Assembly (NCBI GenBank): GCA_009746045.1
Contig: RPFO01000080.1
Location: 11,902,670 to 11,966,669 of the forward strand
Direction of reading: 5' to 3'
Origin: Mesostigma viride
Taxonomy: Eukaryota > Streptophyta > Mesostigmatophyceae > Mesostigmatales > Mesostigmataceae
Length of the DNA: 64,000 nucleotides
Shown here: positions 20,654 through 63,998 of the stretch, one piece after another
Numbering within the stretch: the stretch's first letter is position 1
How the letters are laid out: each line of letters starts with the position of its first letter
Program-made: the position numbers and the translations under genes
Notes under the pieces: model-generated
What the model was told of the DNA's origin: nothing
Seen by the model: only the letters and a program-made list of their open reading frames with translations
Database searches by the model: none

Positions 20654-23600
20654 ATGCAGGGCGCTGCGGATACCTTTACCACCGTCAGCACCACCACGGC
20701 CTTTGGGCGAGCAAAGGCGAGCTGCTGCGGTGCTTTCTTCGGCGTCATTCTTCTAATTGGCAGCATCGGGCTCCTTGTTTGGAATGAAGGTCGATCTTAC
20801 GACACCGAGGTAAGGACCGGCCTTTTTTCGCTGGTTATGCGATTGCGTGTCTCTCTTCTGGTACCTCTATGCTTGTCCACCTAGGGTCGTGACGTTTAGA
20901 ACTCAAAAGCAGCTCCGTGATCTTCATGCATACACAGATGGTAGATTGCTTATCTGATTGTTGATTGGATAATTGCAAACGCGGGACTAAACGTCGTAGG
21001 GATATCCTTTTGTGCACGACCAAGTGTTATGCTGGATTTTTTTTATTTGTAGTGATGGCTGCGCGTTGACTGCTTCGCGATCATTTTTTGCCGGTCGAGA
21101 CGCTGTTATGTCCTTACACAATTGAAACAGCAAATCGCGACAGTGTGACCAAAGAGAGTTTTTTTGGTGCACTACATTGGTTCAGTTGGGTCGATGCAGC
21201 AACAGGTTACTTGACCCTGGTTTTATTCTAGAATATGCTCAGCCGGATGCTATAGGATGAGCGATGTGCTTAATCAAGCTGTGGGATGTTTGTGCATGCT
21301 TGATTATAATTGAAAACCTCCTAACAGTGCTGGCACAGGTTGTGTGTTCACCTTTACTCCAGTGCACGCTGTACCCCCCTTCCATCCACCTCTCACCCGC
21401 CCATCCCCCTTCCACCCCTGACCACCTTCCTCCCCCCTCCCCCGCCCATCCCCGTTGCCCCCCTGCCCCTCTCCCCCATGCATGTCGCCCCCCTCTGCTC
21501 CCAATTTCACATCGGCTTCCCACTTTGAATCCACCTTGAATACCCCAACGTACTGTCCACCCCCTTCACCACCTACTTCCCCACCCCCAACCCAATAATA
21601 GCACCTCCAATCGCAACTTCAACTTCAACTTCGACCCCAAACCCAAACCAAACCCGACCCCAAACCCAAACCCAAACCCAAACCCAAACCCAAACCTCAA
21701 CCTCAAACCCAACCTCTGCGTCCCTCTCCCCCCCATCCCCACCCTCCTCAGCGCAAGTTGGTGCTGGGCCGCCGCAAGGTGGTTGACGTCGGGCCCGACT
21801 CTTGGAACACGACGGAGCTGGGCGCGCTCATCCACGTGGCGGGCACGCTGACCAACGTGCCGCTGCTCAAGGACACGTGCGTGGTGGAGTGTGTGGGGCC
21901 GTTGGAGTGGTAGAGTGTGTGTGGCCGTTGGAGTGGTAGAGTGTGTGGGGCCGCTGGTGTGGTGGAGTGGGGGGGGCCATTGGCACGTTCTTTACAAGGC
22001 AGCATCCAGCGCGGACCAGCGTGCAGCAACCAACGTACACTTATTAAGGACAATTATTAAAGGACAGCCAATTGTTCTTGTTGAATTTACTAGTTTGTAT
22101 GGGTTTTGGTGTCAAGTGTTGGATCCCCGTGGGCACGCGCAACAACGTGCGCCGCTGCACAGGAGCGCGTGCCCTTGCTGGTGGCCACAATCGTGCCTAT
22201 TGGTTACGCCCTTCCATGCCGTTGCCTTCAAGCGCAGCCTTACATGATGTGTGGGCAAGCAGTGCTTGGCCGTATGCGTGACCCAGTGAACTGCTGTGTC
22301 CCATGATTGGCCCTAATATGCCACGCCCTGGCCAGTCTACCAAGTATCAGCCGCAGTGGGGTTGGTTTTGAGTTCACAAGATGGCCCAGCGTAGGCGTGG
22401 GGTGTACCTTGACCTGCTGTTGGCCCCCTCTTGGTGCTGCCTCTGCCCCCTACTTGCGGCCCCCCCTTCCCCCCTAGTTGTTGCGTGTGCGTGCAGCGAC
22501 GTTGGCCTCGTGTTGACTCTGTGCCCCGCCCTTCGCCCATCCCTTGGCCCTTCTCCGTGCTTGTTGTGGCGCGTGCGTGCAGCGACTTTGGCATCCTCGA
22601 GCAGACCGTGCGGCTCGTGCGGAAAGTCGAGATGTGGCAGGTAAGGGCGCGACACTGCACCCTCAATTGTGGAGATGCGGCCGGTAACGGTGGGGCAGTT
22701 CATTGTTCTGTCCCATGTGGTCGTGGAGGCGCTAGTTCTCCCGATTGCGCACCACCCACATCCTCTATTCATGTTCCTAGATCTCAAATTATATCTCAAA
22801 GTATGGTAGTACTAGTAGTTGTAGGTTAGGAAAATACGTCCCTAGTAAGTTCTCCTAACAGTCAAGATAAGTTCTGCGAATGAGTTCCTAATAAGTTCTA
22901 AAACTCGTGCATTCAGTCTTTCTCCTATGCATAATGGGCTGGACACCCCAAACACAAGGGCACGAGTCATCATCGCTGCATATTCCCCTCACTGCATATC
23001 CCCTCCTACTTCGTCGTTTCTATGGAATTCATGGCGATTGTAGCTGGCGCAATTAGTTTTGTTTTGTTTATTGTTGTGGTGGCATGGCTCGTCCCACTCG
23101 CTCGTTTCGAGGCATGCACGCCCACGCTTCCTGTGTGTTGCTGATGCTCACCTTCCCATGTCTCTCATGTCCCTCCTGTTGTTGCTCACATTCCAAAACT
23201 CTAATGTCCCTCCTCATGAGGCTCACGTTCCGGTATCTCTCATGCCCCTCCCATGCGCCATCTGCGACACACACCCAACGCAGTGGCACGAGTCTTCCCA
23301 GTCGCGCACGACCCGTGACGCCTTTGGCAAGGAGACGACGGTGACCGAGTACACCTACAACCTGGACTGGGATGAACGGCTCATCAGCTCATCGAACTTC
23401 CACGCACAGGGGGGGCACCAGAACCCAGCCGTGTTCCCCGTGCAGGCCATGGAGCAGTGGGGGACTGGGATCAAGGTAAGGGCTGCCTCTGCCTACTGGC
23501 TGCTTGAGTAGGTGAGGGCGGTCCCTGCCTACTGGGCGCTTGAGTTAAGGTCAGGGCGGAGGTAAGCGCGGCAGGTGAAGTGCATGAAGGTATCTGTGGC

Positions 23601-26600
23601 GGTCTACATGCCTGCCTTGCAGCAGTGCGCAACGGGCCTAGTGGCAGCCATAGACGGCTGTCTACATGATGTCCCAAGATGTGTAAACGATGCAGTGTGC
23701 AGGCGTGGGTGGCCATCTTTCGCCGGCCATGCAGCAGTGGCCGAGGAGAGGGAAACGCAGGGGCGCCCGTCTACTCGCGGGAAAGCATCAATAGCGGTAT
23801 CGGCGCGCACTTGGCGGAAGGCGATGCAACTGCTTGGAGCGGGCCACGAGCCGGCATATGGACCACGAGCCGTGCCCCAGCTCTGGAGGCGCCAGCGACC
23901 TAGAATAGCTGGAGGCGCCAGCGACCTAGAATAGCTGGAGGTGCCAGCGACCTGCATTCTAGTAGACCTCATGTCTGTCGTTTGACCCCCGTTGTGCCCT
24001 GCATTCTAGTAGACCTCATTTCTATCGTTTGACCCCCGTTGTGCCCCGCATTCTAGTAGACCGCATGTCTATCGTTTGACCCCCGTTGTGCCCCGCATTC
24101 TAGTAGACCTCATGTCTATCGTTTGACCCCCGTTGTGCCCTGCATTCTAGTAGACCTCATGTCTATCGTTTGACCCCCGTTGTGCCCTGCATTCTAGTAG
24201 ACCTCATTTCTATCGTTTGACCCCCGTTGTGCCCCGCATTCTAGTAGACCGCATGTCTATCGTTTGACCCCCGTTGTGCCCCGCATTCTAGTAGACCTCA
24301 TGTCTATCGTTTGACCCCCGTTGTGCCCCGCATTCTAGTAGACCTCATGTCTATCGTTTGACCCCCGTTGTGCCCTGCATTCTAGTAGCCCTCATGTCTG
24401 TCGTTTGACCCCCATTGTGCCCTGCATTCTAGTAGACCTCATGTCTATCGTTTGACCCCCGTTGTGCCCTGCATTCTAGTAGACCTCGTGTCTATCGTTT
24501 GACCCCCATTGTGCCCTGCACTCTAGTAGACCTCATGTCTATCGTTTGATCCCCGTTGTGCCCTGCATTCTAGTAGACCTCGTGTCTATCGTTTGACCCC
24601 CGTTGTGCCCTGCATTCTAGTAGACCTCATTTCTATCGTTTGACCCCCGTTGTGCCCCGCATTCTAGTAGACCTCATGTCTATCGTTTGACCCCCGTTGT
24701 GCCCTGCATTCTAGTAGACCTCATGTCTATCGTTTGACCCCGGTTGTGCCCTGCATTCTAGTAGACCTCCTGTCTATCGTTTGACCCCCGTTGTGCCCCG
24801 CATTCTAGTAGACCTCATGTCTATCGTTTGACCCCCGTTGTGCCCTGCATTCTAGTAGACCTCCTGTCTATCGTTTGACCCCCGTTGTGCCCTGCACTCT
24901 AGTAGACCTCCTGTCTATCGTTTGACCCCCGTTGTGCCCTGCATTCTAGTAGACCTCCTGTCTATCGTTTGACCCCCGTTGTGCCCCGCATTCTAGTAGA
25001 CCTCATGTCTATCTGTTGACCCCCATTCTGCCATGGCGTTCCACTTCTTGGCAGGAAATCGGGTGCCTGTCAGGACCACCCCCACACTCCTCCCTCAGTC
25101 CCCTCACCGCCCCCTCCCCTGGCACCGCCTTTTTCCCGTCTGGTCCTTGTGCACCTTGTTGCCCTTTGCTCCACCTACCATGGCCCTCCCGCGCCCCCTC
25201 CCAGGTGGGCGCATACCCCCTGTCCACCGCCTTGATCCAGCGCATCGGGTCCCTGGAGCAAGTCATAGACCAGGTGGCCGGCAACGCCCCCCTGCCGTCC
25301 TCCCCCCTCTACACAGCGGGTCTGCGGTTCACCGCCATGGGCGCGGCTTTCTACTCGCCCGGCGCGGTCACTGCCCCGCAGCTGGGGGACCTGCGCGTGA
25401 CCTTCTTCTACTGCCCCACGACAGAGGTCTCGGTCGTGGGCCAGCTGACGGCGGACTCGTTTGCGCCATGGTCGACCGAGTGGGGGGAAGTGCTGCTGCT
25501 GCAGGAGGTGGGTGGGTGGGCGCCGTGGGGAGGGTTGCCCTTGAAGTAAATACACGTGTCGTAAAGCGTAGATTGTCAGGAGGAGTGGGGGGTGGGGAAG
25601 GTAGAAGGGGAAGGAGACGTGCTGCGGCTGCAGAAGGTGGGTGTTTGAGTAATGATTGTGTTTTGGAGGGTACTGGAAGGCTGGAAGGCTAGCGGTGAGG
25701 GAGGTTGGCGGTGTGTGTGTGGGGGGGGATGAGGGGGGTGGGTGGAGTGTGGCATGGTGCTGCGCTGTGTTGCCGTTTGGATGCCTTTGAAGCAAACACG
25801 TATGTCGTTTGGGTGCGTACAAATGAATGGCATTTTGGGGTAGGAGGCAGCTGTCGCGAGGGAGGTTGGTAGGTAAGGGAGGGACGTGGGCGCTGTGTGG
25901 CGTTGCCTGGTGGTTGCCTGGCGGTTGCCTTGCCTTTTCACCAGCGGCCACGCGTGTGCGTTCTATCCGCGCTGTATGGGGCGCAGAAGCAGCCGTCCGT
26001 GTTGGGGGAGCACCGCACTGCGTGGCACCCAAAGGCAGCATGGATTGGGTTCTCCCATCTGGGGGGCTTTTGCCACGCGGCGTTTGAGTTCGCGGTGTTT
26101 TCGTACATCTTGGGGAGCACATCGCGGGGAACACATCTTGGGGAATACATGGCGGTGTTTTCGTACCTGGCCCATTCTCTCCAAGCTCCCTCGTCCCTCG
26201 TCCCTCCTCCCATGCCCCCGTCTTCTCCTCCACCCTCTTCTCTGCCCTCTTCACCCCCCCCACCCCTTTTACCTCACCCCCCTTCCCTCTGTCTCTGGCC
26301 TTTCACCACCCCTCCCCCTCTCCACCCTGCCCTGCACCCGTCGTTGCTCCCCTTCCCCGGCTCATGCTGCTCCGCGCGGTCCCCAACGTTTTCACAATCC
26401 AAGGGCGTTGCCTTGCGAAGCCGCAGCCTGTGCTAACCCTCTTGTCGCCCCCCGCACAAGCGCGGCATGGACGCATGCATGTGCACACGGCTCCGCACGC
26501 TACCTCCTTGCACGCGGCCTCCCCCTGGGTATTTGGGTGTGCGTTCCGGGAGGCTGCCGCCGTGTGCTTACGCTCAAGCGGGTTCTCACGTTACAGCCGT

Positions 26601-27506
26601 ACTAGAGGTATGTGGTACATGGCTTTTGCATAATAGTTATTATTATCCTTGTTCAATCGCAGTCTGGGCCCATTTACGCGTCTACCCATGCTTGCCTCGC
26701 TTTGTCCCCACGTTCCCACGTCCCTGCACCCCATACCCCCACCTCCACCGCATCGGCCTCAGGGCATCTACACCTCGGACGAGATGTTTGACGAGGCGCT
26801 TGCGGAGAACGCCGCCCTTACCTGGGTGCTACGCGCCATCGGCTGGCTGCTCACCTGCTTCTCCTTCTTCCTCGTCCTCTCCCCCGTGGCTGCCGTGCCC
26901 GATCTCATCCCCTTCATCGGCGGGTTCATGGCCGAGGCCGCCAGGTGCGTGCTGGGCGCGATTTCCCTCGTCGTCGGCACCGCCCTCTCGGTGCTGACCA
27001 TCGGCATTGCCTACATCGCGCAGCGCCCAGCGTTGGCCTTCCTCCTCATGGCCATCCTCGCTGCCATCATCGGTGCCGTCGTCTACTACCTCGCGCGCGT
27101 GCGCAAGCCCAGCCAAGGCCACGTCAAGTTGGAGCAGGAGGTGGAGGGCCACTCCCCGCACAGCCCGGGCCACTCCACATCGGGGGGGGGCTACTTCCAG
27201 ATGTCGTTTGCGTCGCAGCCTTTGCCTGCATATGGCAGTCTGCCACCCGCGCAGGGGGGCCTGTATGGGAGCACGCTCCCTCCCCAGGGGGCAGGGGCGT
27301 TTGGGGGCATCCCTCCGGTGCAGGCGAGCCCTTACGGCGGGGTGGCACCGCCGGGGATGATGTACGCGCCCGCCACGGGGGGCATCGGGTCGTACGGAGC
27401 CAGTAATCCGACCCCGTACTACGGGGCCCCACCCATGCCCATGTATGGCGCGCCGCAGGTGTACCCGCCGCCAGGGTATCCGTCGGACCCCTATTCGAAG
27501 AAATAA
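20654..27506 (+). CDS. TMEM43: TMEM43 (LUMA) family multispanning membrane protein, six exons
   Basis: Exons: 20654-20809, 21752-21876, 22583-22640, 23284-23475, 25205-25507, 26763-27506. All introns are GT-AG and phases fit throughout, giving 525 residues. TMEM43 sits in the ER and inner nuclear membrane, binds LINC-complex and lamina partners in animals, and its biochemical role is unsettled. Visible marks are an N-terminal membrane helix (about residues 24-43) followed by WNEGR, then VVDVGPDSWNTTELGALIHV, then VEMWQ joined to WHE across an intron. A lumenal domain follows, then LLLQEGIYTSDEMF and three or four helices after TWVLRAIGWLL. Human TMEM43 has 400 residues; the extra length here is mainly a C-terminal tail of about 110 residues rich in Pro, Gly and Tyr, ending YPPPGYPSDPYSKK. 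Several exon borders are echoed in the introns. Confidence 0.9.
21640..21712. repeat. (CCCAAA)n tract in TMEM43 intron 1
   Basis: A six-base repeat with minor interruptions, within a C/T-rich stretch before the exon 2 acceptor. It could serve as a pyrimidine-rich acceptor region. It is not a canonical telomere repeat. Confidence 0.8.
22125..22175 (+). repeat. Diverged echo of the TMEM43 exon 2 end
   Basis: cgtgggcacgcgcaacaacg followed by tgcgccgctgcacagg and a gtgccc donor-like site resembles the exon 2 end (ggcgggcacgctgaccaacg, tgccgctgctcaagg) 0.27 kb upstream. It lies inside the following intron. Confidence 0.5.
22479..22512 (+). repeat. Echo of the TMEM43 exon 3 acceptor
   Basis: gttgcgtgtgcgtgcagcga then cgttggcctcg repeats the true acceptor and exon start (gcgcgtgcgtgcagcgactt, tggcatcctcg) 86 bp downstream. 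Confidence 0.6.
23476..23560 (+). repeat. Duplicated donor region after TMEM43 exon 4
   Basis: The donor gtaagggctgcctctgccta and the bases ctggctgcttgagta that follow are repeated with changes 43 bp later (gtgagggcggtccctgccta). This creates a second potential donor. Confidence 0.6.
23951..25015. repeat. 47-bp minisatellite, about 22 copies, in TMEM43 intron 4
   Basis: The unit starts cctgcattctagtagacctc and ends gacccccgttgtgc. Marker variants ctcatttct and accgcatgt recur 188 bp apart, so at least part of the array has a four-monomer higher-order unit. It makes up most of the 1.7-kb intron and stops about 190 bp before exon 5. Confidence 0.92.
25608..25645 (+). repeat. Echo of the TMEM43 exon 5 end and donor
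   Basis: gacgtgctgcggctgcagaa then ggtgggtg resembles the exon end gaagtgctgctgctgcagga then ggtgggtg, about 130 bp downstream of the true donor. Confidence 0.6.
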
Positions 27507-28400: not shown

Positions 28401-28404
28401 GGCA

Positions 28405-28490
28405 CCCCCATTAATTAATTAATTGATTGGTTAATTAATTAATTAATTAATTGATTGGCTAATTAATTAATTAATTAATCATTAGAGTCG
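28405..28490. repeat. TTAA tail tracts
   Basis: Blocks of attaattaattaattgattgg lie at the start of the retroelement cluster, tails of one or more LINE 3' ends. Confidence 0.8.
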
Positions 28491-28495
28491 TTGTA

Positions 28496-28690: not shown

Positions 28691-28726
28691 GAACATAACT
28701 CCGTTGGGAGTATCTGTAGCACATAG

Positions 28727-30251: not shown

Positions 30252-30276
30252 TAAAATTAAATTAAATTAAATTATA

Positions 30277-30301: not shown

Positions 30302-30382
30302 AGCACATATTTCATGATGGATGGGGTGGAGGAAGCCGCGTGATCGAACTATCCTAACTCTATCTAGAAAAGCCTAACTACA

Positions 30383-36633: not shown

Positions 36634-37009
36634 ACTTCGGGCATACAGGCCGGGTCTATCTTTACAGGCACGGTGTGCTGTGCTGGTATCCTCGTACGGC
36701 GTGATGCTGCCAGGCAACACCCGACCAGATAGGGCTATGCGAGGGAATCTAATGGACAACCGCACAAGAAAGAGAATGGGGCATGAGCCCGACTAACATG
36801 TTGCGGTGCGGCATAGCATAGCATACCTTTCCGCTTCATCATATAAGCGAACACCTCAGGAAGTACCTTTCCTTCAGCGCGGCAATAACACACGTACTCA
36901 ACACACGTACTCTTCCGGTACTTCCGTGCCCTTCCTGCGTGTGTAGGTTAAGGCACGCAGTAAGGGCTTGTTACGCGCGGCGGCAACAAGGATCGACAAC
37001 CATGCCTAC

Positions 37010-40000
37010 CTTTCGGCTTGTGTCCTGCGCCTCTCCGGTCTTCCTTCCCCTTGGCGGCGATGAACCCCTGCGCGTCCAGCAGCTCCCTCGCTGCGTTGTT
37101 GATGAACTTGAAGCGGTCGGGGCCCAGCAGCACGCCACCAAACCACCGCGAGACGACCACGACCTGCACGTTCTCAAATAAAGCGCGTTCCCAATCATCA
37201 CGTTCCCATGATGCCAAGTACAGCATGGGGCCCTGTTGTAGCATCAGGGGGAAACATATGCTGCTCCCTCCCTACGCATAGCGCACGCCCACCACAAACT
37301 GATGTGCCCTGCCTAAGAGCTCATAACGAGAAAGCTGACCATGACCATGCTGCATCCGTATAATCACATGGAATCGCCGTGCCCCCACCCAACAGAATGC
37401 GCACACCCACCACAAGGTGCCACGCCTCACCCCAGAGCTCACAAGGACCAGTTACAGCAGTAGGGTGCCCCCACCCACCACATTGCGAGCGTCCACCACT
37501 TGCAGCAGGTGGAGCAGGCGACCGCCCGCCGCCGCCTCGCCGTCATCATCGCTGTCTTGGGCGACCTGGTGAGGAAGAAAGCAGGCAAAGAGGGGTAGCA
37601 ACAAAAGGTCGGGTATTGATTCCTGTCAATCGTCACCGGTGTCTTGGGCGACCTGGTGTCATAGGCAGAGTGCAGGCAAACAAGGGCAGCATCACAAACA
37701 ACAGGTAAACAAGGGCAGACGGTTTAGTTCCTGTCATCATCCTCGCTGTCCTGCGCCACCTGGCGGAATAAGGCAGGTAAGGCAACATTTGCGTAGATAA
37801 CAACCGTTAGTAACACGAATACCGAAAACGGACCACAACCTGCCGCATGCGACGATGAGCAGGCAAGGGGCAACGGTTAATATACCACACAGCTACTAAG
37901 AGCAATGGTAACGAATAGCGGCGCACTATTTCATAACATGCTTTGTCAACGCAGGGTTAACAAAACATAGCACGAGTGCCTTTGGTCAACCCTGCGTTAT
38001 CAAAACGTGTTGCAAAATAGCGCAGCTATTTCGTTGGCAGTAGCACAGAAAGAAAAGTCACAGTATCCTGCGTCATCGTCGTCGCTGTCCTGCATGATGA
38101 GCAGGACAGCCCAGGGTAACACAAATAAAGATACCCGTGGGCACCTTCTGCACAGGCAAGGCAGTATACTAGAGCCGTGTGCAATAGTAGTCCCTCCCTA
38201 ATATCCGTGTCGCTCTCCTGCGCAACCTAGCCTCTCCCGACCACTCGGGAAAATCCACCGGAGAAGGAAAAACAAAACATAGGTCAGAGACGGTGGGGAA
38301 GAAAGACTGCAGGGAGGAAGGCACGGCGGCACACGTCTGGTCAGAATCATGCGAGGATGGTCGCATGCGAGGATGACCATGAAGATACCATGAATTGGCA
38401 CACCCGTGGCTAACAATATGGAAAAGGGCCAGGCCCGCTGCGCCCCCCCCCCACGCCCGTCTCCACCCCCTACCCACCACGCCCGTCTCCTCCAGCCCCC
38501 ACCCCCCACGCCTGCCTCCAGTCCACCCCCCACCCCCCACGCCCGTCTCCTCCAGCCCCCACCCCCCACGCCCGTCTCCTCCAGCCCCCACCCACCACGC
38601 CCGTCTCCTCGACGCAGTATCGATACGCCATGATGTTGTGTGTGGCCTCGGCGATGCGCTTGTCCGACAGCAGCTCATCCATCACGCGTGTGACCTGAGT
38701 GGTTGCGGTTGGGCACCCACAGTAGCATGTATATATATAGCCCGACCCACGCACATAGCACACGGGTAACTTGCAGCAGCTCTTCCATCACGTGTGCGTG
38801 TGCATTTGTGTGCGTGTGCTTGTGTGTGCGCGCGTCTGTGTGTATGTGTATGCGTGTCCGGGTTGGCAAATACACCGTACTGAGCTGCGAAAAATACGGG
38901 AGTATGTGTACCGAACGCCGTGAAACCCCCCCCCCGCGTATTTTCGACGGTACGGGAACTGGACTTTTGCGGGGTACCAGCGGGCAGCGCGGTGCCTGTA
39001 CTGGGGTCTTGGCGGGGTGTTTCACTCCCCGTTCGAGATTTTTACTCACACTAGATGCGAACGGTTCTTTCCGTCAAGCGCAAGCCTTACAAATCATGGC
39101 CTAGGAATAATTCTAGTTGTAAGTTGGTGCGAAAGCCAACATTAATGCATTATGTCAGCATATGCGACGCGCAAGTGAAGGTGTGATACTGGTCGTTATG
39201 CTGCAATATAGCGAGGTGCGGTCAGGCCAGTGCGACAGCGATTTTCAGTTAGCAGCCGTGCATAATTGTGCCAAAGGTCCTGAGTGGGATTATGAGGTAA
39301 AAACGAAAGAACAAATAAGAAATCCTCATATGGTCAAACCGGTTTCCGTGACGAAGTACCACTGGCTCGCAGTTTGCAACAAGAACTTTTCGTGCGTCTA
39401 CCTCATCATCGACTCTTCTTCATCATGGCTACAGATTGCCAAACGGCTGGTTACCACAGACGAGATGGCTGCCAAGCTGCTGGTCGCCGAGACGTTTAGA
39501 TGGGATTAAATGCAGGGCACATGCGGATGTTTTTAACCAATAAGCACACCAAATGTTCTCAACCAATACGCACCAACGTCACGAACGAGCATGCTATATT
39601 GTGTGATGAAGTTGGAAATGACGAAGTTTGGTAATTATTATCCGTGCTGGTAGTGTTCTTCATATGGATGCACTGCAACCCTTAAACAGTCACGTATTTT
39701 GGGCCCGCGTACTTTGGGGCCCGAAGTGTATAATATTGTAAGTATATAATATTGTATTTTCAGGCCCCACGTATTGACGCGCGTACCGTATTTGCCAACC
39801 CCGATGCGTGTGGTTGTGGGTGTGTGCATGCGCCAGTGTGTGCGTGTGTGTCTGTGTGTGTGGTTGAGTGCTCGATGCATGAATGTTCACAATGTGTGCG
39901 TTTGGTGGCAGCAGCAGCGGCGCAGAGGCGGCCCACCATGTGGGGATGGTATGGGAGTGCGGGTGGGCATGTGCGTACATGTGTCCAGAACAAACGATAG

Positions 40001-43000
40001 ACACAGGGGCGGATACTCAAACACACGTGCACCATGGGGGGCGGGTGACAGCATGTTCCTGTGTGTGCTTGTTGGCAGCAAATGCACAGGCACGGTCCAC
40101 CAGCTGCAACCATCGTAGCGGGAGGCACCAGCGTGAGGCCATGCCGACCGCCCAACCCAAGTCACGCGATCCGCTCGCCACCAAGGCGGCATGCCAACGC
40201 AGTACAGCTCGATGATACTGCGACGTCACTCGGGGGCATCGCTGCCTACGAGGGCGGCTGACAGAATGGGTCCAATGTAGGACGTGTCCAAAACATGCAA
40301 TACCCCGTGTTGTGGCAGCAAGCAGCATGGTCGCACCTGGTCCATGGACGTTACAGGCGCCAGGTGTGCCTGGAACTTGCCTGCACGGCCGAGGCAGGAT
40401 GTGCAACATGACAGGATGCCGCATGACAGGACCACAGCACAAGATGAAGGCAGTAGTACATGGGGAGGTTCAGTGTGGTTGAACTAGGAATGTGCGTGCG
40501 TGCAGTAGACTCAGCTAGCTCAAAGAACAGGAAGGGGGGGGGAGGGGGGAGAGGGGGGGGAGGGGGAAGGAGCTGGGAGGGAGGGAGGGACACAGATCCA
40601 TGCACTAAACCCAGAACGTGCAAACCGGCCTGCTATGTTATGTTGTAGATCCCAGTCTATCAAAGCAAAGGGGGGGGAAGCATGCACATTGGATGCAAGC
40701 CAGCCGCAAGACGTGGGATCAAGGACGAGAGAACACACATCGAGGGCATGGTGCGTGACGAGCTTTTCGCAAGCATAAGCTGGCCAGAACGCGGTCTGCT
40801 TCGCCGTGCGCAAAGTGCCGGTTTGTTCCACGTGCACCAAACGATAGCTACCGGGTCCAAACGAGCATAGCCCGGACAAGGCACACATTCCACCAACAGA
40901 GATTAGACATACAAGGGAAGGGAAGTGAGGTATTCTCATGCCATGTGGCGCATCAGCCACTGATTCGGTGCGTGCCACCCAGCAAATATCGCCTGGGGTG
41001 GAGAGAGAGGTAAACCGCTGATAAAAGCCAGAAGCAACACAATCCTCACCTCGCAAAACAAAAACCCTTTAGATAAGGCTAGGCATGCTGAACCCACTTC
41101 CTTGCTTGTCCCACTCTACGCTCCCCCAGCCCCCCTATGCCCCCCTACTCTGCCCTCGCACAAGGCTCTGCTCCGCCCCCTTCCCTCCGCCCCTACCCAC
41201 TTTTCCGCTCCACAAACGGCTCCCCGTGGACGATGCCGAGTGACGCCTCTGCCCCTCCCCCGGCTGCCCCTGCCGCTGCGGACCCGTTCACCCTGGCCGA
41301 TGCGCCGCTGTCCTTTCGGCTGCGCGGCGGCGATACCAGTAACAGGACAGCCGGTGTTGCAGTGCCGAATATGCACGAAAGTAGAGAACAATTGGCATAT
41401 CAAGAGATACCCGCGAAAGTACAAATATCCACGCCAGTATCATCCCATTGGGTGGAAAGCAAGAGAAGGCTGGCCGAAAGAAATTTCCTACCATCGGCAG
41501 GCCAACCACATCCCCTACACCAGCAGGCCCAATGAGCCGCACACCGTGTTTCTGTCCTAGTCAGATATGAAACAAAGGAGCCGCACACCACGTTTCTCTC
41601 CTAGGCAGATGTGACACAAAGTAGGAGTCCCTACAGGGGGGTGATGTTCCTAGAAGAGAGCATCGCGCACACATGATCACCTACAGGACAATCGGTATTC
41701 CCTACAACAATTTTAATGCATCACTCCAAGCATGCTGTGGCGCCCCTACATCTCAAGGGCTGTATGACTACTCTCTGTCAGTTGTCACAATACTTTCCGA
41801 CACGCCCCGAGTGCTGTAGAGTGACCATAACCCCTGCCTCTCATATCCTATCTATAGCATGCCCTTTACAGGGCAATTATGGTCATGTAGTGTTTCCCCT
41901 CACCTGCCCGCAAACTGCTACCTTATGGGCCTTGCCACCTTCTGGGCCATCGCCACCGGCATAGCATGTACCTGTTTCCCCCCCATGCCCTCACATACTC
42001 GCGTGTGTTCTTCTGGCTGGAGGATCCCATCTTCCCATTCCCATCTCCTCCCCACTCGCATCCTGTCCAGGTCCCTTCCATCGCACGTCGCTACTATCAC
42101 ACGCGCCAGTCATGGTTCTTAGGGTCGTTTGATCACCACCCCCTGGACGCCTCACCTTTGGGCCGCAGCCATCGGCGCTATAAGCATCGGCGTTATAAGC
42201 ATTCAATCCTCCAGCGCTCTCTACTGCGCAAAACGCCCCACCCGCCGCCGCCGCCACATTGCTAGCATCTACTCCCCTACCATCTTCTCGCACCCTATAT
42301 ACAGATACCCCATCTACCCACCTCTGCGCTGCGGCCATTACTATTACTAGAGTATTCTGACACTGCTTCTCCTTCTCTGTGCGGCTCCTGCCCTGCCCCG
42401 CCGCAGCAACCCCATTGCACTCATTCGATGCCAGCACCCCGATCGCAACAATCCGCTCCCGTTCCATCTTCTCGCCACCTGCATACATGCGCCCCCCCAC
42501 TTCTGCGTTGCGGCAACTGCAGCTGTCAATAATCCCATAATTATCCCACAAGGGCAAATGCTCTGCGGCTCCCCGACGGGACTGCGCGACTAATGGATTA
42601 ACTAATTAATTAATCAATCAGTTAATCAAATAAGTAATCGATTAGAAAATATCCCTTCACTATTTCCCCGCACCACCCCACAGCTGCGCCGCAGCCATGG
42701 TCACTGCAAGCAGTCCTACAATACTCCCCCCACCGCTGCGCCGCAGCCATGGTCACTGCAAGCAGTCCTACAATACTCCCCCCACCGCTGCGCCACAGTC
42801 ATGGTCACTGCAAGCAGTCCTACAATACTCCCCCCACCGCTGCGCCACAGTCATGGTCACTGCAAGCAGTCCTACAATACTCCCCCACCGCTGCGCCACA
42901 GTCATGGTCACTGCAAGCAGTCCTACAATACTCCCCCCACCGCTGCGCCACAGTCATGGTCACTGCAAGCAGTCCTACAATACTCCCCCCACCGCTGCGC

Positions 43001-45211
43001 CACAGTCATGGTCACTGCAAGCAGTCCTACAATACTCCCCCCACCGCTGCGCCACAGTCATGGTCACTGCAAGCAGTCCTACAATACTCCCCCACCGCTC
43101 CGCCACAGTCATGGTCACTGCAAGCAGTCCTACAATACTCCCCCCACTGCTGCGCCACAGTCATGGTCACTGCAAGCAGTCCTACAATACTCCCCCACCG
43201 CTGCGCCACAGTCATGGTCACTGCAAGCAGTCCTACAATACTCCCCCCACCGCTCCGCCACAGTCATGGTCACTGCAAGCAGTCCTACAATACTCCCCCC
43301 ACCGCTGCGCCGCAGTCATGGTCACTGCAAGCAGTCCTACAATACTCCCCCCACTGCTGCGCCGCAGTCATGGTCACTGCAAGCAGTCCTACAATACTCC
43401 CCCCACCGCTGCGCCACAGTCATGGTCACTGCAAGCAGTCCTACAGTACTCCCCCACCTCTGCGCCTCCTGCGCGAACCGCCCCGCCTTGAGCAGCCGCT
43501 CAAACGCCTCGTCATCCAGCGACGCCACGTGTCCTATCGCCGACGGCTCCACCCACACGGCGCCATCAGGCCCTTGTGCCATCGGCCCATTGGCGTGGTA
43601 TGAGCCAGAGTAAAGCTCGGCGCCCCGACGGCTGGCATCCGCGCCGCCCCTGGCAGCGCCGGGCCCCTTGCCGTTGGCAAGCGGCTGCGAGGCGCTGATC
43701 TCCCACAGCACGTCTTGTTGCTGGTGCAGGACGAGACAGCGAGGGGGGGAACACACGGCATGAATGGGGGAGGTTGGAACGCGGCACGTTGTTGCTGGTG
43801 GAGGATGAGGCAGCGAGGGGGGAACACACGGCATGAATGGGGGAGGTTGGAACGCGGCACGTTGTTGCTGGTGGAGGATGAGGCAGCGAGGGGGGAACAC
43901 ACGGCATGAATGGGGGAGGTTGGAACGGGGCAGTGAGGGGAGGGTGGCAGACCATGCGAGGCGAGGTGTTTGTGGCGTTGCAGGGGCGGCCGTGCAGGGC
44001 CAGTGGTGAAGAGGTGGTTGCTCAGCCGCGAGGGTTCAAGGGTGGCGTGAAGCGCTGCCAAGTCGGGGATGGCAAGCCTACACTACAATTATAGTAAGCA
44101 ATTTTTAAAAAATCATACTCTTCAGTTTTGGATTATATGATTACAGTATTTGCTGCATAGACATAGTAGTAGTTGAATTCGGTGTGCCCCTTTCGGCCGT
44201 CACAATTCGATGTGCCCCTGTCGGCCGCCACAATTCACTCGGGTTTGCTATGAGCCTCGTACGCGATGAATGGTTGTCTATCTACCACCGCCCACCCCTG
44301 GCATCCGCCACCTTCCGTCTCCGCTACGCGCCCAGGGACCTGCAGACTTGCGCACGATGAAACCTTCCTCACATGGTACTTTCTCCTAGGTAAAACACCT
44401 TTTATCAAATACGCTTAACCTTAAAAACAAACAGGGAAACCAGAATGCAATACTCAGGGCCTCCGCGAGCCACTGGATCCGATGACACACAGGAAAGGGG
44501 CGCAACGACATACTGTAGTAGGATAAAACCGTACTACTGTTATAGTATACAAGCCTTGATGCATCGCAATACCCAATACCCAGGTACTCACCTTGAGCCA
44601 CTCAATGCACTGGTAGAGGCACGGCTCACCCCCGCTCGCCCTCGCCATCTCGTCCAATTCGGCCAATGCCCAGCCACAGAGGCCAGCATGAGCTCCCGAT
44701 GTGTCCGCATGTCCGCCACTCCTGCCCACAAGTCCCTCCCCCACTGCCCCCACCGTGGTCCCCCCCGTGGCCATCTCGCGGGCCATCCGCAGCGACTCAT
44801 GGGGAACCAGCCGCATGGCGGGCACGCCCTGGGACGGGTACCCAGGGGGCAGCGCTGCGAGGAAGAGGATGCTTTGCTCGTGCGGGTCATGGAACCACCC
44901 TGGGGGGCTGACAGCGCCGCTGGGGTGCCCACCCGCGGCGCCGAAGACGTCCGCGGAAGACTGGACGGCATCGTCCGCAAGTCGCACCCGCACCTGCCGT
45001 GGACGTGGACCCCGTGCCATGACCATGTGTGATGGGGGGCATGGACATCCCACGGCGCAACCAGGGGTGGGCATCACACGGGGCAGGGATCCCACGGCGC
45101 ACCAGGACCGGGGACCAAGCCCTTGCGAAGCAGGTGCCAGGGCCACAACCACAGGCGGTGGTGAGCATGCAGCCATGTGGCGGTGGTGGTGGCAGTGGCG
45201 GTGGCGGTGGC

Positions 45212-45243
<32 letters not shown>

Positions 45244-46073
45244 TGGTGGTGGTGGTGGTGGTGGTGGTGGTGGTGGTGGTGGTAAGCGTGAAGCCATGGC
45301 TGGGACACACACACATGGGGTGGGGAGGTCAAAACATCAGACTAATTTTAAAAAGAAAAATTGAACCAGAGCCGGCCGTGGCCAGGTGAGGGGCAGGGGC
45401 GCGCAGAGGCATGTACGGCCTTGCAAGGCATCACCACACGGCACGAGCAATAGCATGGACGGTTACAAGGACTATCGATTTGGGATTCCCAACTTGGCGG
45501 GCGGTTGCATGGTGGAACCTACTCACCTGGCGCGGGCTCCAGTTCCAAAATAAGAAAAGTTTACCAAGGCTGCACGTGCACACTCGCATGGCCCCTCCAC
45601 GCCCCCAATAACCGACATCATATTGTCAATAGTTCATTGAAAAGAAAAAAAGGAACTCGCCTGGCACGTCCACGAGCCATAGTCCACGTGGCAGTCGTCG
45701 CCATAAATAGACTCGAGCACCTGCAGCTCCTCAATCTGGGCCTCGCGCACCGCGGGGTCCGCATCCGCACTCATGACCATGCCCCCGCCGCCTCCAGAAT
45801 TATTATTAAAGGCTGACAACAAGGCGGCTTCTGTCATAAACTCGAGTCTCCCTCCCTTGCCCTCCAGGGGCCCCTTGCCTGCTTCCCCATCATGACTCAT
45901 GCCTGCCCCCGCAGATGCCGCCACAACCGAGTTGAGTGCGCTCGTGGTTGGTTCGGGCGATGGCTCGGGCGCGGGCGGCGGCGCTGGTTTGACGGTGGCA
46001 TCCGTGGCGCGCACTTTCTGGAGGCGCAGGCCTCCCAGGATGTAGCCGAGGACTTGCATCTCCTCCAGTTCTT
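37010..46073 (-). CDS. IMPACT: IMPACT/YIH1 homologue (RWD + UPF0029), at least eight exons
   Basis: Exons (minus): 46073?-45661, 44993-44592, 43720-43458, 41319-41201, 40380-40337, 38694-38599 (or 38596), 37565-37479, 37163-37010, plus a final part. All joins keep phase. IMPACT/YIH1 binds GCN1 and restrains the eIF2-alpha kinase GCN2 in the cytosol. The first exons carry an RWD domain: EELQVLESIYGDD, LAALPPGYPS, then ASGGEPCLYQCIEWLK. The later ones carry the IMPACT domain: IVHGEPFVERK, KFQAHLAPVTSMDQ, EATHNIMAYRY, DSDDDGEAAAGGRLLHLLQ and SRWFGGVLLGPDRFKFINNA. The first intron appears to use a GC donor (CAG/gcgagt). The start is uncertain: ATG at 45900 or 45774, or in an exon upstream of 46073. 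After 37010 the reading may splice (gtaggc) or run on to a stop at 36948. Confidence 0.88.
37620..38232 (-). repeat. Four echoes of the start of IMPACT exon 37565-37479
   Basis: Relative to the true exon start (acceptor then gtcgcccaagacagcgatga), similar acceptor-plus-exon starts occur near 37652 (gtcgcccaagacaccggtga), 37759 (gtggcgcaggacagcgagga), about 38100 (gacagcgacgacgatgac) and about 38230 (ggttgcgcaggagagcgaca). Only the first has the complete GGRLLHLLQ exon; the others break off after the acidic part. Confidence 0.7.
38445..38598 (-). repeat. About 30-bp minisatellite repeating the IMPACT exon 38694-38599 donor
   Basis: The exon end gaggagacgggcgtg and the donor gtgggtggggg recur about six times (minus strand gctggaggagacgggcgtgg), starting at the real junction and running into the intron. 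Confidence 0.75.
38858..39803. mobile_element. 946-bp hAT-like element with 8-bp TSD
   Basis: Termini are ccgggttggcaaatac (left) and the reverse complement cggggttggcaaatac (right), flanked by atgcgtgt at 38850-38857 and 39804-39811. An 8-bp duplication and short GGTTGGCAAATA-type ends are characteristic of hAT transposons. It lies in an IMPACT intron, in a gt-rich microsatellite, which makes an 8-bp match by chance a little easier. No hAT transposase motif is visible, so it is probably a non-autonomous copy. Confidence 0.55.
39162..39509 (+). CDS. Small ORF of 115 aa inside the hAT-like element
   Basis: Reads LQYSEVRSGQCDSDFQLAAV, then KTKEQIRNPHMVKPVSVTKY and SWLQIAKRLVTTDEMAAKLL. Composition is protein-like and free of repeats. 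I do not recognise a domain, and no BED zinc finger or DDE motif is present. It may be a fragment of an element gene or chance. Confidence 0.22.
   Translation: MRRASEGVILVVMLQYSEVRSGQCDSDFQLAAVHNCAKGPEWDYEVKTKEQIRNPHMVKPVSVTKYHWLAVCNKNFSCVYLIIDSSSSWLQIAKRLVTTDEMAAKLLVAETFRWD
42696..43457 (-). repeat. 52-bp minisatellite, about 15 copies, starting at the IMPACT exon 43720-43458 donor
   Basis: Minus strand: the true exon end ggaggcgcagag and donor gtgggggagtactg are followed by 51-52-bp units, each with tgtggcgcagcg and gtggggggagtattg. Each unit is thus a copy of the exon edge plus a potential donor. Frames reading HSHGHCKQSYNTPPTA are artefacts. Confidence 0.9.
43721..43935 (-). repeat. 71-bp tandem repeat upstream of the same exon's acceptor
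   Basis: Three units contain catcctccaccagcaacaac, echoing the true acceptor tcctgcaccag and exon start caacaagacg at 43720. Confidence 0.75.
45179..45285. repeat. (GGT/GGC)n trinucleotide tract
   Basis: About 36 units of ggt and ggcggt in the intron between IMPACT exons at 45661 and 44993. Confidence 0.95.
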
Positions 46074-46310
46074 CTGTGGGTGGGGCAAGAGGCAAGGGGA
46101 CAAGGGATGGTAACACGACGGGGGCCAGGTCATGAGTGTGCGGTCGAGGACTTGCACCTCTACTCGCTGCTCTGTGGGTGGGGCGACAAGAGGGGACGAG
46201 GTGGGGCCTTGCCGTGAGCGAAACATGGGCATGTAAGGATGTAGCCCAAGGCTCGCACCGCTTTCTGGTTGCTCTGTGGGTAGGGCAAGGGAAGAAGCAA
46301 TGAGGGGAAT
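46074..46310 (-). repeat. Acceptor echoes upstream of the first recognised IMPACT exon
   Basis: Minus-strand ccacccacag followed by exon-like starts occurs at about 46074, 46181 and 46283. The following bases share gaggtgcaagtcctcg-like sequence. The acceptor and exon start were therefore duplicated twice. Confidence 0.65.
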
Positions 46311-58127: not shown

Positions 58128-58165
58128 CGTGACTCCCCAACGGGAGCACGAGTTCAATTAATTAA
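58128..58165 (+). mobile_element. LINE 3'-end remnant: bulged hairpin and tail
   Basis: cgtg, a, ctccc, caac, gggag, cacg at 58128-58150 followed by aattaattaatt. It is the same 3' end as LINE copy 2, on the plus strand. Confidence 0.75.
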
Positions 58166-58360
58166 TTCTATCTAGAATGAGCCAGACCCTAGGGGTCTTG
58201 CCTGCCATGCTTCCTACGCTTGCAAACACGCGGCTTCCCCACTGGGGGGGGGGGGGGGTTCATTGTCCTCTATACCGTGAGCCCACTTGGCCTTGTCCAT
58301 CATCTTTTTCCAAATCACGGAGAGCCCTAGGACCCCATGTCCTCTAATAGCTTGCCTTAC
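58166..58360 (-). pseudogene. LINE ORF2 C-terminal fragment
   Basis: Homologous to 48760-48910: the minus strand encodes SVIWKKMMDKAKWA-like sequence up to the end region, with a G run (58246-58258) expanded. Confidence 0.7.
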
Positions 58361-60638: not shown

Positions 60639-63600
60639 ATGGCAGGTCCCTACCGTAGGGTGAAGGTGGGCAAGTCGGCCTCCCCGAGCCCGAAGGGCGG
60701 CTCCGCGGCGGAGGAAGAGAAAATCGTCAGGCCCAAGGTGTGCACGCCGAGCTTCTCCGCTATGGCGCTGTGCGTGCTGGGGCTGGGCATCGCGCTCAGC
60801 GTGTGGCTGGCCGTCAGCAGCTACCGCTCCAGCTCCAAGGAAGCGTTTAACTCGTTTGAGCACTACTCGAAGAACCTGGCCAACATCATGCGCACGGAAA
60901 TGGGCTGTCACCAGGAGCACTTGAGCCTGGCGGCCATACGCGTCGCGCCCGACCTCCCGGCGCTCCCGTTCGAGAACTTCGACGCGATCGCCTCGCACCT
61001 GGTAGGCAAGCGGGACTGGATCCAGGCCATCGAGTGGGTCCCGCGCGTGCGCCACGACGACCGCGAGCTCGCCAAGGTTGTCGGCGCGGCGCTGTACAAC
61101 CGCAGCAGCTTCGACTTCTCGGAACGCCTGCCCACTACGGGTCAACTCGTGCCCGCGGGCAACCGTTCCGAGTACTTCCCCGTCTTCTACTTGCACCCTT
61201 ACCAGGGCAACCAGGCTGCCCTGGGCTTTGACCTCGCGTCGAGCGAGCCGCGGCGAAGCTATTTATACAGGTCGGCAGAGCTGGGCACCACATTGGCCAC
61301 GAGCCGCGTCACGCTCGTCCAAGAGACGTCGAGCAGCTTCGGCTTCCTCCTCTTCTGCCCGGTGTACACCGCATTGGACGTGGTGGACCGCTCGCTGAGC
61401 TGGCGGCGTGACAACCTGGTGGGCTTCCTGCTGGGCGTGTACCGCGTCCAGGCGCTGATGGAGCGGTTCCTGGGTGACACGATTCAGGACATCGAGAACT
61501 GGCACAGTGAACGCGTGCGCGTGGCGCTGTACGACGAGGACGCGCCGCGAGGGCAGCAGTTCCTGGCGCATCGCAGCCTGGCCGTGGGGTACGACAACGT
61601 GCAGATGCTAGCAAACAGCACGCCCGCGGACGCGATGCGGGGCACGTCGCTGTCCCGCTCGTACCCCGTCGAGGTGGGCGGCCGCCGCTGGACGCTCGTG
61701 GTCGTCGCCACCTGGGAGTTCCTGAACCACTTCCGTGGCCGCGCCATTATGATTGGCATCGTGGGCAGCCTGTGCAGCCTGCTGGCGACAGCGCTCCTGG
61801 CGGGCGTCCAGTGGCGCAGCCTCAAGAAGAGTCAGACGACGCGGCGGCTGCGCGAGCTCACGCGCCACCTGCTGGAGTCCAAGCGCAAGGCCGAGAAGGC
61901 GACACAGCACGCGGTGCAGACGATGAACTTCATCTGCCACGAGGTGCGCAACCCTCTGCACGCGGCCACTGGGATGATGTCGCTGCTTAAGGAGTCCAGC
62001 ATGGGGCCCGAGGAGATCCGCGAGACGATCAAGGACATCGAGTCGGCGCTCGGATTCCTCCACCGCATCCTGAATGACGTGCTGGACCTGAATAAGATCA
62101 CGTCCGGGCGCATGGAGTTTGAGCAGTCGCCGTTCAAGCTGCGCCGCGTGCTGGAGGACGTGCGGCGGAATTATGCGGCCACCGCAGCGAGGCTTGGCAT
62201 CGCCTGGAGCGTGACGGTCGACAGCGATGTCCCCGACGTGCTCATTGGCGACGACGGCCGGCTGCAGCAGTGCATGACCAACCTGATCGGGAACGCATTC
62301 CGCTTCGTCAAGGCCGGGTTTGTGCGCGTGCACGTGTCGCTGCTGAACAAGGAGGACCAGGGCGGCGGCGTGCCGGGCGACGGGGGCGGCGGGAACAGGG
62401 CCAACCAGGGGGGCGCCACATCCATCGAGCCCTTCTTCTTGCGCGCGCTACGCCGGCGGCGCACCTGCTCCGACAGCAAAGCTTCCCCACGCCGCCCCCG
62501 CTTCCTGTCCTTCACGTCGGCACGCCCCCGCGCGTCCTCCTTCACCTCGGCGTGCCGGCCTCCGAGCCTGGGTGCGTGGAGCAGCCTCGGCGAGTCGTCA
62601 GTGACAGATTGGGGTAATGGCACGTTGGGGGGCGACAAGGGCAGGCCGGGCCACCGGCGCCACTCGCTCCCCTCGGCCCCCATTTGGGAGATCACTGAGG
62701 AGAGCCCCTGCGAGCGGTGCGGCGGGTCGGGCTACCTCTCGGGGGCAGATGGCAGCACGAGTCTCAAGCGGTGCCCGTGCGGCGCCAGCAGCGATCGGCT
62801 GCGATGGCGGAGGTCCACCGTCTCGGGTGCTCTGGAGAGCGTGGCCAGCAGGATACACCTGCCGGGCCGCACGTTGTGTGCTGGCGACGACACACCGGCC
62901 CCGCAGGACACTGTAGCGCAGCAGATCCATGTAAGACCACAGGGCGATCGATTGAACGCGGGCGCCCTGTCCCCGCGCGCCGCACCTACGGGTCATCCCA
63001 CTCGTGCATCCGGCACACACACAACAACTGTGGGAGGCATTCTCGTGCTCTCGAACGCGGCCGCAGGGGGCGCCATGCTGTCCGACGCCGCGAGGGCGGG
63101 CGCCGTGCCCGACGCCGCGAGGGCGGGCGCCGTGCCCGACGTGGAGAGCTCAGAAGCGTCACAGGAGGTGGTGGAGGTGACGGCCTCGGTGGCGGGTGTC
63201 AGCGGTGGCCAGGGCGGCATCGGCCGGTCGTGGTTCTCGCACCGCATGGCTCGCAACCATTGCGCGGGGCGGCCCGCTGGCGGCAGCGTAAGCGTGGGAA
63301 CGTCCACCGCCGCGAATTCCCTGCTGGGCTCCTGCGCCTCCTCGCGCCGTGAGACGAATAGCAGCTACGGCGGGCCCGAGGAGAGGGTCAGCGACGAGGG
63401 CATTGGTGGCGTGGGTGGGGGCAGGTACCGTGCTGGCGGGGATGCCTGGCATCGGGGTGAGGAGGGCCGCCCCAGCGTGGGCACGACCGCGATGAGTCTG
63501 CTGGCGGAGCTGGCGTCCTCGCTGGCCGTGTTCCGGCGGTTCACATACAACGGGGCAGGGCGATCTGCTCGGAACAGCCTTGATTTGCCGGGGGCGGCAG

Positions 63601-63898
63601 GGGGAGGAAGGGAGGTGGAAGACGGCTGTGCCTCGCGGGCGACCACATATGTGACGAAAGCGAGCGGGAACATCCAGCGGCGGGACCAGAGGCACCCGGG
63701 AGGTGCGGGCGGTGGCCGTAAGGAGCGCGGGGCGAGCATGGGCAGCGAGGCGATGAAGGAGGAGGAGGGGCCCCACGTGATGCTGCTCGTGTCGGTGCTG
63801 GATAGCGGCATGGGCATCGCGCCGGAAGTGCTGCCCGCGCTTGGGGAGGCGTTCAAGCAGGCTGACGCCAGCATCGCGCGCCAGTACGGCGGGTCAGG
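60639..63898 (+). CDS. CHASE-domain sensor histidine kinase, large first exon (partial)
   Basis: A membrane sensor kinase of the phosphorelay type. Start at ATG 60639 (an in-frame GTG 15 bp upstream is not used in eukaryotes). Residues 40-61 and 369-392 are membrane helices bracketing a CHASE sensor domain (IEWVPRV at 131-137, HPYQGNQAALGFDL, FGFLLFCPVY). The H box FICHEVRNPLHAA has its phospho-accepting His at 434, and the N box ends LIGNAF with Asn 552. About 475 Ser/Gly/Ala/Arg-rich residues then separate the N box from the G1 box (VLDSGMGI, Asp 1055) and FKQADASIARQYGGSG. The exon ends GGGTCA-G/gtaggg at 63898 in phase 1. The G2 box and any receiver domain lie beyond the window. In plants CHASE kinases bind cytokinin; no ligand can be inferred here. 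Confidence 0.9.
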
Positions 63899-63954
63899 TA
63901 GGGGGCCACGCGCTCACTAGGATGAAAGTGTTGTAGGTATGCATGTCGGGTATG

Positions 63955-63998
63955 GACGCCAGCGTCGCGCGCCAGTACGGTGGGCCAGGTAGGGGCCT
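63955..63998 (+). repeat. Echo of the kinase exon end and donor
   Basis: gacgccagcgtcgcgcgcca then gtacggtgggccaggtaggg repeats the exon end gacgccagcatcgcgcgcca, gtacggcgggtcaggtaggg 90 bp upstream, and may continue beyond the window. Confidence 0.8.

What the first reader, a model, noticed from the sequence alone, without database searches (positions are those of the whole stretch)
20654..63998. Splice-site echoes: exon edges with their donor or acceptor are copied into the adjacent intron
At no fewer than ten exon borders in three unrelated genes the exon edge plus its splice signal reappears in the neighbouring intron. TMEM43: donors of exons 2, 4 and 5, acceptor of exon 3. IMPACT: donors of exons ending at 43458 and 38599, acceptors of exons starting at 46073, 43720 and 37565. 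Histidine kinase: exon end at 63898. Copy number runs from 2 to about 15. This is not random intronic repetition: the repeat begins at the real junction and keeps the GT or AG. It could reflect tandem duplication as the way introns grow or arise (AGGT duplication model), and it supplies many alternative splice sites. I know of no name for this pattern at this density.
Basis: partly seen in the sequence, partly recalled or inferred. Interest (0 to 1): 0.88.

Follow-up and report, generated by a model that had tools for sequence, protein, structure and literature searches.

The report
Exon edges duplicated into neighbouring introns
In this unnamed eukaryote, the end of an exon together with its splice signal is often found copied, in the same direction, a short way into the next intron, which points to one way introns lengthen and gain spare splice sites.

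Summary
The echoes are real.

The pattern holds outside the window: in chaperonin and kinesin genes chosen without regard to echoes, 41 of 148 borders against 3 reverse-complement and 4 reversed; donors 30 of 84, acceptors 11 of 64.

Repeats do not start at the junction; they begin about 9-60 nt inside the exon and cross it. By events, crossing is not random: 8 of 20 near-identical families cross a donor, 0.7 expected. By windows there is no excess.

Intron birth by AGGT duplication fails (0 of 58 introns); introner insertion is not supported.

Best account: local, mostly tandem-type duplications straddling exon borders. Selection removes those inside exons and keeps the exon-side splice site in use, leaving the outer copy in the intron; erosion and, in one paralog pair, homogenisation with the exon follow. 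Why exon edges are such frequent sources is unexplained. Without transcripts, use of echo sites is untested.

The parts
20654..27506 (+). TMEM43 gene: exons 20654-20809, 21752-21876, 22583-22640, 23284-23475, 25205-25507, 26763-27506
   Evidence: spliced ORF; Pfam PF07787 1.8e-60
22131..22172 (+). echo of exon 2 donor (34/42, GT kept); a 26-nt minisatellite 21881-21983 also starts just after this donor
   Evidence: p=0.003
22477..22509 (+). echo of exon 3 acceptor (29/33, AG kept)
   Evidence: p=0.003
   Evidence: p=0.010
22943..22971 (+). decayed echo of exon 4 acceptor (23/29, AG now AA)
   Evidence: p=0.003
23473..23559 (+). 36-nt array starting at the exon 4 donor (2-3 exon nt only); a separate exon-only copy lies at 23722-23740
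   Evidence: p=0.007
25613..25643 (+). echo of exon 5 donor (27/31, GT kept)
   Evidence: p=0.003
36827..46073 (-). IMPACT-like gene (RWD + UPF0029): exons 46073-45661 (GC donor), 44993-44592, 43720-43458, 41319-41201, 40380-40337, 38694-38599, 37565-37479, 37163-37010, 36934-36827
   Evidence: spliced ORF; Pfam; PDB IMPACT
46145..46289 (-). two echoes of the 46073 acceptor (46193-46145, 40/49; 46289-46236, 41/54; AG kept in both)
   Evidence: p=0.003
45582..45601 (-). echo of the 45661 GC donor (17/20, GC kept)
   Evidence: p=0.007
43715..43932 (-). 73-nt tandem array that includes the 43720 acceptor; matched copies take in 13 exon nt
   Evidence: p=0.003
42676..43466 (-). 52-nt array (15.3 copies) whose first unit takes in 9 exon nt and the 43458 donor
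   Evidence: p=0.003
38774..38796 (-). echo of the exon starting at 38694 (21/23 exon nt, AG not covered)
   Evidence: p=0.003
38443..38610 (-). 29-nt array whose first unit takes in about 12 exon nt and the 38599 donor
   Evidence: p=0.003
37630..37777 (-). two echoes of the 37565 acceptor (37676-37630, 37/47; 37777-37737, 34/43; AG kept)
   Evidence: p=0.003
37262..37413 (-). two decayed echoes of the 37479 donor (28/35 and 25/34, GT lost)
   Evidence: p=0.003
60639..63897 (+). CHASE histidine kinase exon (start codon presumed); donor after ...QYGGSG
63955..63995 (+). echo of the HK donor (38/41, 34 exon nt, GT kept); the acceptor of the same intron, beyond the window in L004, is echoed too (33/34)

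Best explanation
The echoes are remnants of local, same-direction, mostly tandem-type duplications of about 30-170 nt that straddle an exon-intron border. Shown: copies are almost only in the same direction (searched within 400 nt); exon-derived blocks mostly run through the splice site; no exon-exon duplication was seen; some loci are full tandem arrays, and in some others the remainder of the unit is still homologous; one pair of paralogous genes carries the same array with gene-specific changes shared by the exon edge and its echo. Inferred: a duplication wholly inside an exon breaks the protein and is purged; one that straddles the border is tolerated when the exon-side splice site stays in use, so the outer copy of exon edge plus splice signal becomes intron; the exon side is held by selection while the intron side of the block erodes; repeated rounds and homogenisation with the exon add up to longer introns carrying spare splice-site copies. 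Not explained: why near-identical events cross a donor several times more often than uniform placement predicts. Candidates are a higher duplication rate in exonic DNA and exon-anchored homogenisation that keeps echoes looking young.
For: Direct 15/29 vs reverse complement 0/29 in the window. Outside it 41/148 direct vs 3/148 reverse complement (Fisher 1e-10) and 4/148 reversed; exon-only 37/148 vs 1/148. Strict intron duplications: 16 direct, 0 inverted in 32.8 kb. Interior exon segments against intron 0/106; 0 exon-exon duplications in 15.2 kb of coding edge (an exon between two introns is counted from both sides). Of 13 donor-side exon-derived matches outside the window 10 cross the donor; the other 3 (cctA, cctC, L062) stop 1-25 nt short at donors where another or a gapped match does cross. 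Event test: 8 of 20 families cross a donor vs 0.72 expected, 0 of 20,000 placements; unfiltered 8 of 26 vs 0.96. Simulated detection advantage only 1.3-1.5x. Tandem remainder detectable at 4 of 13 loci tested: HK, L061, cctG6790 (p=0.005 each), cctK (0.04); full arrays at L053 and cctI. Right block edges cluster at +3..+12 overall (14/17, P=6e-5) but not clearly among near-identical blocks (6/9, P=0.10; 3/4, P=0.32), as erosion predicts. Paralog array: 8 sites shared by exon copy and first echo within a gene but different between genes, 0 of the opposite kind.
Against: Window-level counting shows no excess at junctions outside the window: 16.1% of junction-crossing vs 15.4% of intron-interior stretches; long arrays weigh heavily in that measure. 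The event test rests on 20 families from 43 introns of two gene families, not all independent, and no acceptor is crossed there (0 vs 0.73 expected). At 9 of 13 loci tested no tandem remainder is detectable (p 0.065-0.995), among them near-identical ones (L056, L070, cctG3869, cctG1455), so a later deletion or a non-tandem copy must be assumed there. Donor-acceptor asymmetry (30/84 vs 11/64, p=0.016) was absent in the one replicate with both kinds (7/20 vs 6/20). Junctions come from homology and splice consensus, not transcripts.
Confidence: 0.7

Rival explanations
1. Ordinary intronic minisatellites placed at random; echoes are those that happen to touch a border.
For: Local direct repeats are pervasive: 15.4% of intron-interior stretches outside the window and 28% in it carry one, against 16.1% and 27% of junction-crossing stretches; intergenic DNA scores like introns (34% each).
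Against: Event-based placement: 8 of 20 near-identical families cross a donor vs 0.72 expected, unchanged without the low-complexity filter; the simulated detection advantage is far too small. In the window with large arrays masked, 12 of 26 junctions against 57 of 603 interior stretches.
Confidence: 0.15
2. AGGT intron birth: tandem duplication of exonic DNA made new introns whose two ends derive from the two copies.
For: Local duplication is clearly active, and the mechanism is documented elsewhere (PMC2891723, passages; PMC4974935, search listing with start of abstract).
Against: Donor and acceptor regions of the same intron are no more alike than those of different introns: 0 of 58 above the 99th percentile, 2 of 58 above the 95th.
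Confidence: 0.03
3. Mobile-element insertion (introner or retroelement) near splice sites, the echo being a long target-site duplication around the insert.
For: Some copies are separated by spacers without homology to the flanks, with variable block length.
Against: Spacers show no common sequence (best pair score 22; 14 spacers over 10 nt compared, 12 of them with the right shift); 0 of 1537 intron pairs from different genes score 60 or more, the best being 59 (these scores were not set against shuffles).
Confidence: 0.05
4. Splicing-linked copying or selection for spare donors: the exon end plus 5' splice site is copied, or retained, because it binds the splicing machinery.
For: 10 of 13 donor-side exon-derived matches include the splice site; outside the window family starts fall in the last 40 exon nt 9 times and between -8 and +60 never (in the window 3 and 0, or 4 and 2 at the laxer 80% cut); donors are echoed more often than acceptors (p=0.016).
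Against: Any contiguous duplication from exon into intron includes the splice site; edge clustering is weak in near-identical blocks; donor bias was absent in one replicate.
Confidence: 0.12
5. Assembly artefact.
For: Tandem repeats are error-prone in assembly.
Against: Most copies listed differ from the exon edge; a separate contig a few percent diverged (C1641) carries the cctH echo as well; a paralogous gene carries the same array.
Confidence: 0.02

Closest known systems
[quoted passage not shown] potato RdRp, PMC4974935, search listing with start of abstract; human tandem arrays, Zhuo 2007, seen only in a reference list)
   Same: Tandem duplication involving splice-site-bearing sequence
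   Different: There it creates a new intron with similar ends; here existing introns seem to lengthen and their two ends are not similar
Intronic minisatellites
   Same: Some echoes are direct arrays of 29-76 nt units inside introns
   Different: The first unit reaches into the exon and takes in the splice site; donor-crossing is over-represented as events
Short paired direct duplications ('doublets', Thomas et al. 2004; recalled, not found by the search, not read)
   Same: Short same-strand duplications at short distance, sometimes spaced
   Different: Here associated with exon borders
Introners (PMC9860276, search listing with start of abstract)
   Same: Repetitive DNA shaping introns
   Different: No element shared between the introns compared

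Membership tests
Intron gain by tandem exonic (AGGT) duplication | Donor-side and acceptor-side sequences of one intron are copies of each other | tested here: not met
   0 of 58 introns above the 99th percentile of cross-pairs, 2 of 58 above the 95th
Intron gain by tandem exonic (AGGT) duplication | Intron absent in relatives | not testable with these tools
   The genome search says the genome has no relatives in its collection
Introner insertion | Same element in many introns | tested here: not met
   0 of 1537 intron pairs from different genes score 60 or more; 58 introns only
Local tandem-type duplication | Same orientation | tested here: met
   16 direct and 0 inverted strict families; 41/148 vs 3/148 borders
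Local tandem-type duplication | Adjacent full units | tested here: inconclusive
   Full arrays at L053 and cctI; tandem remainder at 4 of 13 other loci tested (HK, L061, cctG6790, cctK), not detectable at 9 of 13
Intronic minisatellite placed at random | Uniform position relative to splice sites | tested here: not met
   8 of 20 families cross a donor, 0.72 expected; but no excess by window count
Functional alternative splice sites | Use in transcripts | not testable with these tools
   No RNA data

The most novel reading that the evidence does not exclude
In this lineage exon ends are hot sources of copies because of splicing or transcription (for example breaks or stalled forks at paused polymerase and R-loops at 5' splice sites), so splicing itself drives intron lengthening; and the exon edge then evolves in concert with its intronic echoes, letting intron copies and coding sequence exchange changes.
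Probability: 0.15. Interest if true: 0.85.

Novelty: new variant of a known kind. Interest (0 to 1): 0.6.

Why it matters
How introns grow is mostly inferred indirectly. Here the conserved exon edge acts as a fixed reference against which duplicated copies in the intron can be recognised, and outside the window 30 of 84 donors tested carry one. Near-identical cases suggest the process continues, unless homogenisation keeps old copies young. It offers a testable system for intron growth, for the origin of cryptic splice sites, and for gene conversion between exon and intron. Eight literature searches (capped lists, two with no hit) listed no paper whose title or abstract start describes junction-spanning echoes; passages of three papers were read.

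Tried and rejected
AGGT end-to-end homology, shared introner elements and shared spacer inserts were tested and not found. Window-level density first suggested no junction excess; event counting showed one, and both are reported. A right-edge rule at the end of the 5' splice site looked like sharp copying but weakens in near-identical blocks, so it is treated as erosion; the 17 blocks were typed by hand, cctC by its gapped match, and 5 of them (cctG6790, cctG3869, cctH2992, cctK3579, cctF12466) sit at exon ends judged by eye, without a profile match. In one search two rows (HK, TMEM43 donor 5) had a mis-set shift (95 and 120 instead of 91 and 129). In one search the spacer also resembled exon further left of the block in 3 of 13 loci (L053b, cctG3869, cctG1455), so left edges there are not sharp. 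Donor-only asymmetry was not upheld in one replicate. Haplotig comparison for an empty site: C2 and C622 identical, C887 and C1641 both carry the echo. Frame rule: shifts were not depleted of multiples of three (4 of 17). Rfam and tRNA scans of the window were empty. A gradient of decay with distance was looked at by eye only and not tested.

Rows dropped before counts: 1 of 22 CCT fragment pairs without a model; 4 of 28 kinesin pairs rejected and 1 low-scoring one skipped; introns under 250 nt left out of event tests, that is 43 of 44 outside introns and 13 of 14 window introns used. Kept in the counts although doubtful: L105 (simple repeat), L074 and L084 (profile match overshoots the exon) and L091 (its reverse complement also passes). 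The organism was not identified.
Full report
WHAT WAS CHECKED. The window is DNA of a eukaryote: position 11,902,670-11,966,669 of contig C1106 in an unnamed 440-Mb assembly. I rebuilt three genes from sequence and homology. TMEM43 (plus strand, 6 exons) gives one continuous spliced frame matching Pfam TMEM43 at 1.8e-60. The IMPACT-like gene (minus strand, 9 exons found) matches RWD and UPF0029 in Pfam and IMPACT in the PDB. A CHASE histidine kinase has one long exon ending at 63897. The kinase continues beyond the window, and its next exon was found in locus L004.

THE OBSERVATION. For every border I took 35 exon and 20 intron nucleotides and searched the adjacent 400 nt of intron against 300 dinucleotide shuffles. 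Same-direction copies were found at 15 of 29 borders (p<=0.01), reverse-complement at 0 of 29, reversed at 1 of 29. With exon letters alone, 8 of 29 pass, 0 of 29 reverse-complement. Copies are listed: for instance, the histidine-kinase donor is repeated 91 nt downstream with 38 of 41 letters, and its acceptor 97 nt upstream with 33 of 34. GT, GC or AG survives in a copy at 12 of the 15 borders.

GENERALITY. The window was picked because it looked striking, so I tested genes chosen without regard to echoes. Chaperonin (CCT) genes gave 21 introns with a clear best junction pair: 8 of 42 borders pass direct, 0 of 42 reverse-complement, 1 of 42 reversed. Kinesins gave 23 introns: 12 of 46 direct, 1 of 46 reverse-complement, 1 of 46 reversed. 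Two further batches used kinesin exon ends placed by profile matches alone: 13 of 40 against 2 of 40 and 2 of 40, and 8 of 20 against 0 and 0 of 20. Together 41 of 148 against 3 of 148 reverse-complement (Fisher 1e-10) and 4 of 148 reversed. Donors: 30 of 84; acceptors: 11 of 64 (p=0.016), though the batch with both kinds of single border showed no difference (7 and 6 of 20). A last batch of acceptors could not be fetched. Some copies are perfect (35/35 in L061; 38/38 in cctH, at an exon end judged by eye).

IS IT JUNCTION-SPECIFIC? Two measures disagree. Counting 40-nt stretches, junction-crossing ones are no more repeated than intron interiors (outside the window 16.1% against 15.4%; in it 27% against 28%). 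Long interior arrays weigh heavily there: with large arrays masked in the window, 12 of 26 junctions against 57 of 603 interior stretches pass. Counting events, of 20 near-identical duplication families in 43 outside introns, 8 cross a donor where uniform placement predicts 0.72 (0 of 20,000 placements reached 8) and none crosses an acceptor (0.73 expected). Dropping the low-complexity filter gives 8 of 26 against 0.96. In the window itself 3 of 8 families cross a donor (0.25 expected) and 1 an acceptor (0.24). Outside the window families start in the last 40 exon nucleotides 9 times and between -8 and +60 never. A simulation in which exon and splice site are frozen gives border-crossing duplications only a 1.3-1.5-fold detection advantage. 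So there is a real excess at donors, on a modest sample.

WHAT IT IS. Strict local intron duplications are direct (16) and not inverted (0). In 15.2 kb of coding edge no exon-exon duplication was seen; of 13 donor-side exon-derived matches outside the window 10 cross the donor and 3 stop short of it at donors where another or a gapped match crosses. A contiguous tandem-type duplication from exon into intron must do this. Some loci are full tandem arrays (70-nt units in L053, 76 in cctI). At 4 of 13 other loci tested the rest of the unit is still homologous (HK, L061, cctG6790, cctK); at 9 of 13 it is not detectable (L053b, L063, L070, L056, cctE2335, cctC6355, cctG3869, cctG1455, cctF12466), so deletion after duplication or a spaced copy must be assumed there. 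Spacers show no common sequence. The intron-side edge of the block clusters just after the 5' splice site in the whole set (14 of 17 at +3 to +12, P=6e-5) but not clearly in near-identical blocks (6 of 9, P=0.10; 3 of 4, P=0.32). That is what erosion of the unselected intron side predicts.

CONCERTED EVOLUTION. Kinesin paralogs on C2189 and C1579 carry the same 70-nt donor array with the same left edge 23 nt inside the exon (176 nt at 85%), while the rest of the 500 nt fetched hardly aligns (one 32-nt match). At 8 sites the exon copy and its first echo agree within each gene and differ between genes, one of them in the exon part; 0 sites show the opposite. This points to homogenisation between exon edge and echo. 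It is one paralog pair only. It also means that near-identical does not always mean recent, which may explain part of the donor excess.

MECHANISM. Best account (confidence 0.7): frequent local duplication; purging of events inside exons; tolerance of border-straddling events when the exon-side splice site stays in use; the outer copy is left in the intron, erodes, and sometimes amplifies or is homogenised. Shown: direction, position, mostly contiguous blocks, presence in other genes, absence in exon interiors. Inferred: the role of selection and which site the spliceosome uses. Unexplained: why exon edges are such frequent sources.

COMPARISON. Tandem duplication is a known route to new introns (PMC2891723, passages read), but that route makes intron ends alike, which is not the case here (0 of 58). 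No shared element links the introns compared. I class it as a new variant of a known kind.

LIMITS.

Noticed in passing
915-2618 and 18449-20142 (inverted, 94%); 3413-4605 and 18185-19379 (inverted, 93%): Two blocks rich in 21-nt repeats lie as inverted copies about 14-16 kb apart, enclosing a reverse-transcriptase ORF (7997-11629, minus strand) and a second ORF (11626-13098, minus strand): possibly a large compound element.
   Followed up: partly
7997-11629 (-), 49139-51559 (-): Long ORFs with reverse-transcriptase (RVT_1) domains, 1.2e-24 and 7.6e-26, taken from memory of such elements to be non-LTR retrotransposons.
   Followed up: no
14601-15760 and 28755-29919: A further dispersed repeat, present as inverted copies at 94% identity.
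   Followed up: no
45661: One intron of the IMPACT gene starts with GC rather than GT, and its decayed echo also keeps GC.
   Followed up: no
L053 and L084: Paralogous kinesin genes share a 70-nt donor array that still aligns (about 85%) while the rest of the intron stretch fetched hardly does.
   Followed up: partly
L098 (kinesin on C1579) against L053 (C2189): An acceptor echo at -277 in one paralog has no match in the other's intron, which suggests gain or loss since the gene duplication.
   Followed up: no
L039/L040 joined, minus strand, cctC donor (index 6355): One donor has five short echo-like matches (16-19 of 22) at irregular shifts of 59, 106, 185, 235 and 283 nt; the chance level was not tested.
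   Followed up: no
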